Source: Neisseriaceae bacterium
GTDB taxonomy: Bacteria > Pseudomonadota > Gammaproteobacteria > Burkholderiales > Neisseriaceae
Direction: 5' to 3'
Length of the DNA stretch: 64,000 nucleotides
Assembly (NCBI GenBank): GCA_016864895.1
Contig: CP046107.1
Location: 248,001-312,000, forward strand
Shown here: positions 7,052 to 55,127 of the stretch, in pieces
How positions within the stretch are numbered: the stretch's first letter is position 1
How the letters are laid out: every line of letters starts with the position of its first letter
Translations under genes and position numbers: made by a program
Notes under the pieces: model-generated
Seen by the model: the letters and a program-made list of their open reading frames with translations, nothing else
What the model was told of the DNA's origin: nothing
Database searches by the model: none

Positions 7052-7957
7052 ATGGCTAAAACAATAAAAATTTCATTTGTGATGATGGTATTAACCTTTT
7101 TTACGTTGGTAACATCATCAATTTTTGCAAATGAGCTACAAGTAATCCCAGAATTAAATAATCCTGTTGTGGATACTGTTGATCTATTAACACCAGAAGA
7201 AAAATCCACCTTAAATCAAAATCTATACAACTTTTACAAAAGAAATGGTAGTCAAATTGTTATCTTAATTATTCCCACAACAGGTTCTGAAAATATTTTT
7301 GATTACAGTTCACGGGTTTTTGAGAAATGGAAAATCGGAAGAAAAGAGTACAATGATGGTGTCTTAATTATAATAGCACTTAATGATCTTAAAATGGGTA
7401 TTTATCCTGGTAGTGGATTAGAAGGGGCAATTCCTGATATAACTGCTAAAAAAATTATTAATCAGGCCATGAAGCCTCACTTTCAACAAAGAGACTACTT
7501 TTCTGGTTTATTTAAAGCATCGCAAATACTGCAACAACTAATTTTAGGAGAGAAACTTCCTGAATATACAGAAGCAAATAAAATTGATAATAGTAATATT
7601 ACTTCTTTTGTTTTATTTTTCCTATTCTTACAATATATTTTGTTCTTCTTGAGAAATAGTTTTGGTAAAGTTTTTGCCTCATGTCTCTCTGCTGGATTTT
7701 CATTTAGCCTGATACAAATTTTTGCAATTTCACAATGGATAGGTATCAGTATTATCGTTATATCTGTATTAATCACCTACTTTGGTTTGATGTCGATTTT
7801 AATCCATATACTTGGTATTGGCAATAATCATCATAGTGGGCTAGCGTCTAGTGGTCGTGGAATATATCATAGTGGGGGCTTCGGAGGAGGTGGTGATGGT
7901 GGATTCAGTGGTGGTGGCGGTGGATTCAGTGGTGGTGGAGCTTCTGGAAGCTGGTAA
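7052..7957 (+). CDS. TPM-domain membrane protein (YgcG family)
   Basis: Length 301 aa. The order is N-terminal signal peptide (hydrophobic to about residue 26, ending SSIFA), an extracytoplasmic TPM domain (PVVDTVDLLTPEEKSTLN to about residue 165, with KWKIGRKEYNDGVLIIIAL and YPGSGLEGAIPD), two or three membrane segments (about 185-265), and a glycine/serine-rich tail ending GGGASGSW. This is the standard build of YgcG-like proteins paired with LemA. It starts 30 bases after lemA and is followed 2 bases later by another TPM gene, so the three probably form one operon. TPM domains have been linked to photosystem repair in plants and to phosphatase activity, but the bacterial role is unclear. 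Confidence 0.88.
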   Translation: MAKTIKISFVMMVLTFFTLVTSSIFANELQVIPELNNPVVDTVDLLTPEEKSTLNQNLYNFYKRNGSQIVILIIPTTGSENIFDYSSRVFEKWKIGRKEYNDGVLIIIALNDLKMGIYPGSGLEGAIPDITAKKIINQAMKPHFQQRDYFSGLFKASQILQQLILGEKLPEYTEANKIDNSNITSFVLFFLFLQYILFFLRNSFGKVFASCLSAGFSFSLIQIFAISQWIGISIIVISVLITYFGLMSILIHILGIGNNHHSGLASSGRGIYHSGGFGGGGDGGFSGGGGGFSGGGASGSW

Positions 7958-52317: not shown

Positions 52318-53064
52318 TTGCAAAAATTATATTATAATATCTGTGCCTGGGTACTTGTTACGATTGTGCATTTGATCTCTATATTTTTATTAATGTTCAT
52401 CAGTAATACACCAAAATTCAAACAGGAATTGATTCTTGAGTTAGTTGATATAAATAATTTAACTGGGAAAAGTAATAATATAAATAATAATAGACAAAAT
52501 AAATCTATTAATAATGACAATCAACATAAACTTCAACCTAGCAAACCAGTACAGAAAAAAATTGAAAAAAAACCTCGTGAAAGAATGCTATCAGCAGATG
52601 ACCCAAACTCTCAATTTCACACTATAGAAAACTCTGATAAAGTAAAACCGACCAATAAAAAAACAGATAATAATCATCATCACAAAATAACAGCAGATGC
52701 TGCAGTGACTGCTTCAGGCAAAAATAATGCTTTAGAGATTCAATCAAATAGTAACAATATAATAAAAAATAATTTAAATACTAAAATGATCAATCAACAA
52801 CCTGACTATAATAAGAAATCTAAGCCTCCTTATCCATTACAGGCCAGAAGAATGGGGGTAGAAGGAACTGTAATTCTTGGCGTAAATATTTCAGAAACTG
52901 GTAGTGTTGAAAATATCAGAATAGTTAGGAGCAGTGGCTCTCCTGAATTAGACAGATCTGCCCTAAATACATATAAAAAAGAAAAATTTATACCTCGGAT
53001 TGAAAATAATATTCCTAAAAAATCATATATAGAATTTGGTGTTAATTTCCGCTTAGAAGATTAG
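52318..53064 (+). CDS. tonB: Energy transducer TonB
   Basis: Periplasm-spanning protein, 248 aa, that passes proton-motive force from ExbBD to outer-membrane receptors. One N-terminal membrane segment (ICAWVLVTIVHLISIFLLMF), then an Asn/Lys-rich spacer (residues 45-165) instead of the classical Pro-Glu/Pro-Lys repeats, and the C-terminal TonB domain: KPPYPLQARRMGVEGTVIL, SGSPELDRSALN and IEFGVNFRL. TTG start with GTAGGA 7 bases upstream; no ATG fits the membrane segment. exbB/exbD are not adjacent. Confidence 0.9.
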   Translation: MQKLYYNICAWVLVTIVHLISIFLLMFISNTPKFKQELILELVDINNLTGKSNNINNNRQNKSINNDNQHKLQPSKPVQKKIEKKPRERMLSADDPNSQFHTIENSDKVKPTNKKTDNNHHHKITADAAVTASGKNNALEIQSNSNNIIKNNLNTKMINQQPDYNKKSKPPYPLQARRMGVEGTVILGVNISETGSVENIRIVRSSGSPELDRSALNTYKKEKFIPRIENNIPKKSYIEFGVNFRLED

Positions 53065-53438
53065 TCATCGTATATCACCTCAAATTACCACTAATGAAAT
53101 ACAATTCATCATTTTTAAAAACGAATTTAATTCTATTGGATCAGAGAAAGAAAGAATTATATTTCCTTCTGTTCTATTCACTTAACAACCTTATTACTTG
53201 TACAGAATTTATTGTATTTTTTATATTCAATATTAGCTATCTAGTCACTTTATAATACTATCATTAACCATAAAATGAATAATTGTTTTTTATTGTTATA
53301 GTGAACTATAAACAAGATAAATTGACTAATATGGTGACCAACATGTTATAATGCTCGGCATTAATGTTGATCATCGAGGCCAACACAAATTTGTATAGTT
53401 TTAAATTCTATTGATACTTTACGTCTGGAGGAAATAAA
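53065..53438. other. Intergenic region between tonB and the repeat-protein gene
   Basis: About 375 bases, AT-rich, with no ORF or RNA gene recognised. Its right end holds the promoter of the repeat gene (53322-53352). No terminator for tonB stands out. Confidence 0.55.
53322..53352 (+). promoter_or_regulatory. Promoter of the repeat-protein gene
   Basis: -35 TTGACT (53322-53327) and perfect -10 TATAAT (53347-53352) with a 19-base spacer, slightly long. The transcript would have a leader of about 80 bases that ends in the strong ribosome site TGGAGGAA. Confidence 0.6.
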
Positions 53439-53831
53439 ATGAGAAATTTATTAAAAGTAATGGCTATGTCAATGGCATTTTTTACAGTTTCCAATATCCA
53501 AGCAGAAGGAATTGAAGATTTCCTAGAAAATCTACAAAAAGAACTTCAAAAACAGTCCGGTGGTCCTCAACAAGCACAATCTGCGGGAGTCATTGAAGAT
53601 TTCTTAGAAAATCTACAAAAAGAGCTTCAAAAACAGTCCGGTGGTCCTCAACAAGCACAATCTGCAGGAGTCATTGAAGATTTCTTAGAAAATCTACAAA
53701 AAGAGCTTCAAAAACAGTCCGGTGGTCCTCAACAAGCACAATCTGCAGGGATCACTGAAGATTTATTAGACAATCTACAAAGAGAACTTCAAAAGCAGTC
53801 TGGTGGTTCTCAATCAGCACAGTCCTCTTAA
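53439..53831 (+). CDS. Exported protein of four 27-residue tandem repeats
   Basis: Not recognised. Length 130 aa. A Sec signal peptide (residues 1-22, cleavage after SNIQA) is followed by four repeat units and nothing else: residues 25-51, 52-78, 79-105 and 106-130. Each unit begins with an amphipathic helix, IEDFLENLQKELQKQ, followed by a flexible SGG-containing Gln/Ala/Ser-rich linker. Units 1-3 are identical in protein, and the last is diverged and two residues shorter. Strong TGGAGGAA ribosome site, own promoter and own terminator, so it is a well-expressed single-gene unit. Could be a periplasmic or secreted helical-bundle, adhesive or lipid-binding peptide; function unknown. Confidence 0.85.
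   Translation: MRNLLKVMAMSMAFFTVSNIQAEGIEDFLENLQKELQKQSGGPQQAQSAGVIEDFLENLQKELQKQSGGPQQAQSAGVIEDFLENLQKELQKQSGGPQQAQSAGITEDLLDNLQRELQKQSGGSQSAQSS
53511..53828 (+). repeat. 81-bp tandem repeats, four units
   Basis: Units at 53511-53591, 53592-53672, 53673-53753 and 53754-53828. Units 1 to 3 differ by only a few silent bases, so the array expanded recently or is kept uniform by recombination. Unit 4 carries several changes and lacks the last six bases. Confidence 0.93.
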
Positions 53832-53847
53832 AGTTTATTTACCTTAT

Positions 53848-53886
53848 AAAAAAACCATCTGTATCCTAGTGACAGATGGTTTTTTA
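53848..53886 (+). terminator. Terminator of the repeat-protein gene
   Basis: AAAAAACCATCTGT / ACAGATGGTTTTTT, a 14-bp stem with a 9-base loop and T-run. Confidence 0.92.
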
Positions 53887-53948: not shown

Positions 53949-55127
53949 ATGTTAATTGATTTCTTTTTTGAACTAAGAAGAGTAAAAATCCCCGTTTCAA
54001 TAAGGGAATGGTTAGATCTAATCAAGGCTCTAGAACAACATATTATATTCGCCTCAATAGATGATTTTTATCAAATATCAAGATTAATTTTGATTAAAAA
54101 TGAAAAATATTATGATAAATTCGATCAAGTATTTGCTTATTATTTTGAGGGGGTTGCACAGATTGATCTTGATATTGAATCTTTCAATATTCCAAAAGAA
54201 TGGTTAGTAAAACAACTAGAAAAATACTTTACCCCTCAAGAGCTGGAAAATATTAAATCTCAAGGTGATCTGAACAAATTAATGGAATTATTTAAACAAC
54301 GTTTACGAGAACAAAAAAAAAGACACCAAGGTGGTAATAAATGGATTGGAACAGCAGGAATATCTCCTTTTGGTGCTTTTGGCTATAATCCAGAAGGTTT
54401 TAGGATTGATCAATTTAAATCAAACCATAGAAAAGCAATTAAAGTTTGGGAAAAACGACAATTTAAAGATCTAGATGAGGATAACCAACTAGATACTAGA
54501 AATATGCAATTGGCTTTAAGACGGCTGAGAATTCTTACTAAAAATAAAAATAATGAAATCTTAGATTTAGGTGAAACTATCAAAGCTACTGCTAAAAATG
54601 CAGGTTTGTTAGATATTAAAAACCAATATGAAAGACATAATGCTGTTAAAGTATTACTATTTTTTGACGTAGGTGGCTCTATGGATGACTACGTCTATCT
54701 ATCTCGACAACTCTTTCAAGCTGTAAAAAATGAATTCAAAAATATGGTCATTTTTTACTTTCATAATTGTGTATACGAATTTGTTTGGCAAAATAATGAA
54801 CGTAGATACAGCGAAACAATATTAACTAACGATATTATTCGAAGATATGAATCTAATTATAAAGTAATTTTTGTAGGAGATGCGAGCATGTCACCTTACG
54901 AAATTAATTATCCAGGTGGTAGTGTGGAACATTTCAATCAAGAACCTGGTAGGGTCTGGATAAATCGTATAACAAATTATTTTAACCATGTGGTATGGTT
55001 AAATCCTGTACAAAAAAAATATTGGGGATATACGCCATCAATAGGCATAATGAGAGAATTAGTGTTAGGAAATATGTACCCGTTAACGATTGAAGGTATC
55101 ATTAAAGCAATTAAGTCAATAAGTTGA
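53949..55127 (+). CDS. VWA-domain protein, CoxE-like
   Basis: Length 392 aa. N-terminal helical region typical of the CoxE group (LIDFFFELRRVKIPVSIREWL), a middle stretch rich in charged residues with GTAGISPFGAFGYNPEGFRI, and a C-terminal von Willebrand A domain with the metal-ion site VLLFFDVGGSMDDYVYLSRQL (DxGxS) near residue 240 and FVGDASMSPYEI later. Such proteins usually partner a MoxR-type AAA ATPase to load or activate metal enzymes, but no MoxR gene is adjacent here. Target unknown. Confidence 0.82.
   Translation: MLIDFFFELRRVKIPVSIREWLDLIKALEQHIIFASIDDFYQISRLILIKNEKYYDKFDQVFAYYFEGVAQIDLDIESFNIPKEWLVKQLEKYFTPQELENIKSQGDLNKLMELFKQRLREQKKRHQGGNKWIGTAGISPFGAFGYNPEGFRIDQFKSNHRKAIKVWEKRQFKDLDEDNQLDTRNMQLALRRLRILTKNKNNEILDLGETIKATAKNAGLLDIKNQYERHNAVKVLLFFDVGGSMDDYVYLSRQLFQAVKNEFKNMVIFYFHNCVYEFVWQNNERRYSETILTNDIIRRYESNYKVIFVGDASMSPYEINYPGGSVEHFNQEPGRVWINRITNYFNHVVWLNPVQKKYWGYTPSIGIMRELVLGNMYPLTIEGIIKAIKSIS

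What the first reader, a model, noticed from the sequence alone, without database searches (positions are those of the whole stretch)
53439..53831. Solitary exported protein made almost only of near-identical 27-residue repeats
The protein is a signal peptide plus four units and nothing else. Three units are identical in protein and nearly so in DNA, so the array is young or homogenised. It has its own promoter, strong ribosome site and strong terminator, so it should be abundant. Each unit is an amphipathic helix plus a flexible Gly/Gln/Ser linker, as in surface-active, pore-associated or multi-peptide precursor proteins. I know of no matching family.
Basis: partly seen in the sequence, partly recalled or inferred. 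Interest (0 to 1): 0.7.

Follow-up and report, generated by a model that had tools for sequence, protein, structure and literature searches.

The report
Louse-symbiont exported helix-repeat orphan protein
A bacterium that lives in sucking lice carries a small, probably exported protein built from repeats of one 27-residue helix-plus-linker unit; only its sister louse symbiont has it too, with two units instead of four and the same core peptide kept by selection, and its function is unknown.

Summary
Positions 53439-53831 (+) encode 130 residues: a Sec-type signal peptide and four 27-residue units, nothing else. Units 2 and 3 are identical in DNA; unit 1 differs by two residues, unit 4 by eight or nine. 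The only relative found is in its sister PsAf, symbiont of Polyplax serrata: same place, 75 residues, two units. The gene is real and constrained: a 20-residue core, ENLQKELQKQSGGPQQAQSA, is identical in the two species although six of about 13 synonymous sites differ; promoter block and terminator stem are conserved. Units are more alike within than between species, so they expanded or were homogenised separately. No homologue was found in 81 other Neisseriaceae, about 800 wider genomes, phages, plasmids, viral contigs, PDB or NCBIfam; the Pfam hits above cut-off are repeat artefacts. Best reading: a secreted or periplasmic acidic protein whose short coiled-coil-type helices on flexible linkers give multivalent binding or self-association. 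This function is inferred. Pore and peptide-precursor readings are weaker.

The parts
53296..53355 (+). conserved promoter block: palindrome TTATAGT-GA-ACTATAA (53296-53311), -35-like TTGACT (53322-53327), extended -10 TGTTATAAT (53344-53352)
   Evidence: 51 of 60 columns identical with PsAf against 54% mean over the intergenic region; 0 of 2000 permutations. The palindrome without mismatch to the pattern occurs only at this gene in each genome; an operator role is inference.
53427..53432 (+). Shine-Dalgarno GGAGGA before ATG 53439
   Evidence: sequence
53439..53504 (+). signal peptide MRNLLKVMAMSMAFFTVSNIQA, no lipobox Cys
   Evidence: sequence; PsAf keeps MKNLLKVMTMSAAFFTVSNVQA; cleavage after IQA/VQA by rule of thumb, no predictor run
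53505..53585 (+). unit 1 EGIEDFLENLQKELQKQSGGPQQAQSA
53586..53666 (+). unit 2 GVIEDFLENLQKELQKQSGGPQQAQSA
53667..53747 (+). unit 3, identical in DNA to unit 2
53748..53828 (+). unit 4 GITEDLLDNLQRELQKQSGGSQSAQSS, divergent
53849..53885 (+). intrinsic terminator: AACCATCTGT / ACAGATGGTT stem with T tract
   Evidence: fold -16.9 kcal/mol, z -6.1; PsAf stem AACCATCTATC / GATAGATGGTT, same energy, z -7.3, differing by paired changes

Best explanation
It is a lineage-specific protein of the Neisseriaceae louse symbionts, exported by Sec and released as a soluble, acidic chain of two (PsAf) to four (HaMa) copies of one unit: a 15-residue amphipathic helix (IEDFLENLQKELQKQ, apolar positions 1-5-8-12, two heptads) and a 10-12-residue flexible linker (SGGPQQAQSA). 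Most likely the helices pair with each other or with helices of partner proteins, so that the chain works as a multivalent binder or self-associating scaffold in the periplasm or outside the cell, with unit number tuning avidity. Shown: coding constraint, repeat homogenisation, conserved promoter and terminator, orthologue. Inferred: export, helix pairing, place and role.
For: Core peptide identical in both species with 6 synonymous and 0 amino-acid differences (Fisher p 3e-5); unit 1 has 12 synonymous and 2 non-synonymous differences. Signal peptides conserved without Cys. Promoter and terminator conserved while the rest of the intergenic DNA diverged. Helical moment 0.69 at 100 degrees with the best periodicity at 96 degrees, and a 3-4 spacing of apolar residues. 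AlphaFold2 makes four helices separated by low-confidence linkers. Low lipid-binding factor, about 0, because of the net negative charge.
Against: AlphaFold2 confidence is low (mean pLDDT 45 and 57), so neither a bundle nor pairing is shown; two heptads are short for a stable coiled coil. The linker is as strictly conserved as the helix, which a mere spacer would not need. No partner is known.
Confidence: 0.4

Rival explanations
1. A small, largely disordered periplasmic protective protein (chaperone or stress buffer), abundant under some condition, working like Asr of E. coli: repeats add mass and charge, not precise binding sites.
For: Gln/Ser/Gly/Glu-rich, GRAVY -1.0, charge -9; low AlphaFold2 confidence; unit number varies; single gene with its own promoter block. 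Asr is described as an intrinsically disordered periplasmic chaperone (PMC10746267).
Against: A 20-residue core identical in both species and a clear amphipathic helix are more than composition would need.
Confidence: 0.25
2. A secreted effector or surface factor that meets the louse host: each unit binds a host molecule.
For: Found only in the louse-symbiont genus and not in 81 other Neisseriaceae; signal peptide; repeat-number differences between symbionts of two louse species; one TolC-family protein is encoded.
Against: No outer-membrane secretion signal recognised; host contact untested; restriction to two genomes is also what any orphan gene shows.
Confidence: 0.15
3. A precursor cut into several copies of one peptide (signal or bacteriocin-like).
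For: Unit border falls at the signal-peptidase site and units end in AQSA; units nearly identical.
Against: No dibasic or Gly-Gly cutting site, no immunity, protease or exporter gene beside it, peptides acidic; unit 4 is divergent and ends in QSS.
Confidence: 0.08
4. Membrane-active (surfactant or pore) helix repeats.
For: High helical moment.
Against: Net charge -2 per helix and mean hydrophobicity 0.18; lipid factor about 0, below the 0.68 usually asked for (threshold from memory; value).
Confidence: 0.07

Closest known systems
Neisseria Lip/H.8 antigen (AAEAP pentapeptide repeats)
   Same: Small exported protein of the same bacterial family made almost wholly of near-identical tandem repeats (14 pentapeptide repeats in a title cited by PMC4553322).
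   Different: H.8 is a lipoprotein with 5-residue repeats; here no lipobox, 27-residue helix-linker units, no sequence similarity found.
Asr, periplasmic acid shock protein of enterobacteria
   Same: Small, exported, repetitive, Gln/Ala-rich, probably little folded.
   Different: Asr is basic (from memory) and its family is not among the hits; this protein is acidic with amphipathic helices.
PF08289 Flu_M1_C (Pfam hit above cut-off)
   Same: A short helical stretch of similar letters.
   Different: Match falls from 36 to 17 bits with two units, and is absent with one unit and in the PsAf orthologue: repeats add up a chance likeness.

Membership tests
PF08289 Flu_M1_C | profile match over cut-off in the orthologue and in a single unit | tested here: not met
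Neisseria Lip/H.8-type repeat lipoprotein | lipobox Cys after the signal peptide | tested here: not met
   no Cys in the protein
Neisseria Lip/H.8-type repeat lipoprotein | AAEAP pentapeptide repeats | tested here: not met
   units are 27 residues
Asr | Pfam/NCBIfam match | tested here: not met
   not among hits shown
Coiled-coil repeat proteins (structural class) | 3-4 apolar spacing in helices | tested here: met
   I1, L5, L8, L12; moment in the top 0.1-0.4% of shuffles
Coiled-coil repeat proteins (structural class) | helix-helix packing | tested here: inconclusive
   AlphaFold2 pLDDT 45-57, pTM 0.30-0.42
Lipid-binding amphipathic helix repeats | lipid-binding factor from moment and charge | tested here: not met
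   about 0 for HaMa units, 0.28 and 0.62 for PsAf units
Bacteriocin or peptide precursors | cutting site at the unit border, immunity and exporter genes nearby | tested here: not met
   neighbours are TonB-like, VWA_CoxE, AAA_28, NMN transporter, ProQ

The most novel reading that the evidence does not exclude
A new secreted multivalent helix-repeat family invented in the louse symbionts, whose unit number is adjusted per louse host and which takes part in the symbiosis.
Probability: 0.15. Interest if true: 0.7.

Novelty: new variant of a known kind. Interest (0 to 1): 0.38.

Why it matters
A shrinking symbiont genome usually loses genes. Here a gene without detectable ancestry outside the genus is kept under purifying selection, with its own promoter and terminator, and its repeats turn over independently in symbionts of two louse species. 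If it meets the host, it would be a direct handle on how these symbionts live in lice; if it is a periplasmic buffer, it is a modest curiosity.

Tried and rejected
Flu_M1_C, RecG_N and other Pfam, PHROG, NCBIfam and PADLOC hits: rejected as sums of chance over repeats; they vanish or fall below cut-off in the orthologue and single unit. PDB hit to TFIIIB B'' repeats at E 0.011: chance. Unit-profile hits in other Neisseriaceae at E 0.1-0.5 cover 8-14 residues, mostly inside longer frames; a hit at E 0.001 in one genome of the order covers 12 residues of a long protein that looks like a GldG-type ABC-system subunit (my reading). Search for a regulon of the promoter palindrome: other sites with mismatches are no more frequent than the reversed-pattern control, and those read show no similar promoter. 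Rfam: only a weak hit, below gathering score, to the terminator hairpin. The 5' leader shows no stable fold. The idea that the gene belongs to the VWA/MoxR pair downstream: it has its own terminator, the VWA relative read in another family has a MoxR ATPase in front instead, and the symbionts' MoxR lies elsewhere. Paper searches for similar symbiont repeat proteins gave nothing on point.

Full report
What is there. The window is part of a single 1,607,491-base contig, the length given for the Neisseriaceae symbiont HaMa of the louse Hoplopleura acanthopus (GCA_016864895.1; PMC12175528, PMC9376444); the identification rests on length, family and the sister genome. The ORF at 53439-53831 encodes 22 residues of signal peptide and four units of 27 residues. 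Units 2 and 3 are identical in DNA, unit 1 differs at 6 of 81 bases and two residues, unit 4 at 16-19 bases and 8-9 residues. The array is the only one of its kind in the window.

Relatives. A pattern scan of a collection of 84,980 species genomes gives one relative: Neisseriaceae bacterium PsAf, from the louse Polyplax serrata. There the gene sits at the same place, before the same VWA_CoxE gene, and has two units. No other genome among 83 of the family, 399 sampled from the order and 398 sampled from the phylum has it, nor do phages, plasmids or viral contigs. The scan for degenerate peptide patterns reaches close relatives only, so a distant, single-unit ancestor could be missed; the profile searches partly cover this.

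Selection and turnover. Neighbouring genes differ between the two genomes by dS about 0.8-1.5 and dN 0.05-0.19. Unit 1 has 12 synonymous and 2 non-synonymous differences (p 7e-9). The core ENLQKELQKQSGGPQQAQSA of HaMa unit 1 and PsAf unit 2 has 6 and 0 (p 3e-5). Within species, units 1-3 of HaMa differ at 0-2 of 60 core bases and the two PsAf units at 2, against 6-9 between species (HaMa unit 4 stands apart at 11-16 from all). So the copies were duplicated or homogenised after the split. In PsAf the first residues of unit 2 (DNGNW) differ from unit 1 while the rest is almost identical, which looks like partial gene conversion. That unit 1 is more constrained than the VWA gene is suggestive only (p 0.09).

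Expression signals. A 60-column block with the -35-like and extended -10 elements is 85% identical between species, against 54% over the intergenic stretch. The terminator hairpin is kept at equal stability with paired changes. These argue for a transcribed gene; strength is not measured. The palindrome TTATAGTGAACTATAA upstream could be an operator; no clear second site was found in the genome.

Structure. The helix IEDFLENLQKELQKQ has a moment of 0.69 (0.1% of shuffles reach it) and net charge -2; the linker shows no helical amphipathicity. AlphaFold2 gives four helices and low-confidence linkers for the mature chain, with low overall confidence, so no fold search was run.

Interpretation. 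The most economical reading is an exported, acidic, multivalent helix-linker chain. Helix pairing is favoured over membrane action because of the charge and the 3-4 spacing, and over a peptide precursor because no cutting or export genes accompany it. The Asr-like disordered-buffer reading is the strongest rival. Every functional step is inference.

Novelty. The sequence family is not in Pfam, NCBIfam, PHROGs, PADLOC or PDB, but lineage-restricted exported repeat proteins are a known kind, the Neisseria H.8 lipoprotein being one. I therefore call it a new variant of a known kind, of moderate interest.

Noticed in passing
53949-55127: VWA_CoxE gene: about 45-53% identical to genes of other families of the order, but not found in the 23 other Neisseriaceae genomes sampled; its MoxR-type partner, adjacent in the one relative read (L006), lies elsewhere in the symbiont genome (G000:C1:48923-49744).
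   Followed up: partly
53296-53311: Palindrome TTATAGT-GA-ACTATAA, with a similar GTGACC element 33 bases downstream between -35 and -10; looks like a paired operator of an unknown regulator.
   Followed up: partly
7837-7950: Gly-rich C-terminal tail (GGGGDGGFSGGGGGFSGGGASGSW) of a membrane protein; ordinary-looking low-complexity end.
   Followed up: no
52318-53064: TonB-like protein with a TTG start in the ORF list just upstream (TonB_C match); no receptor gene looked for.
   Followed up: no
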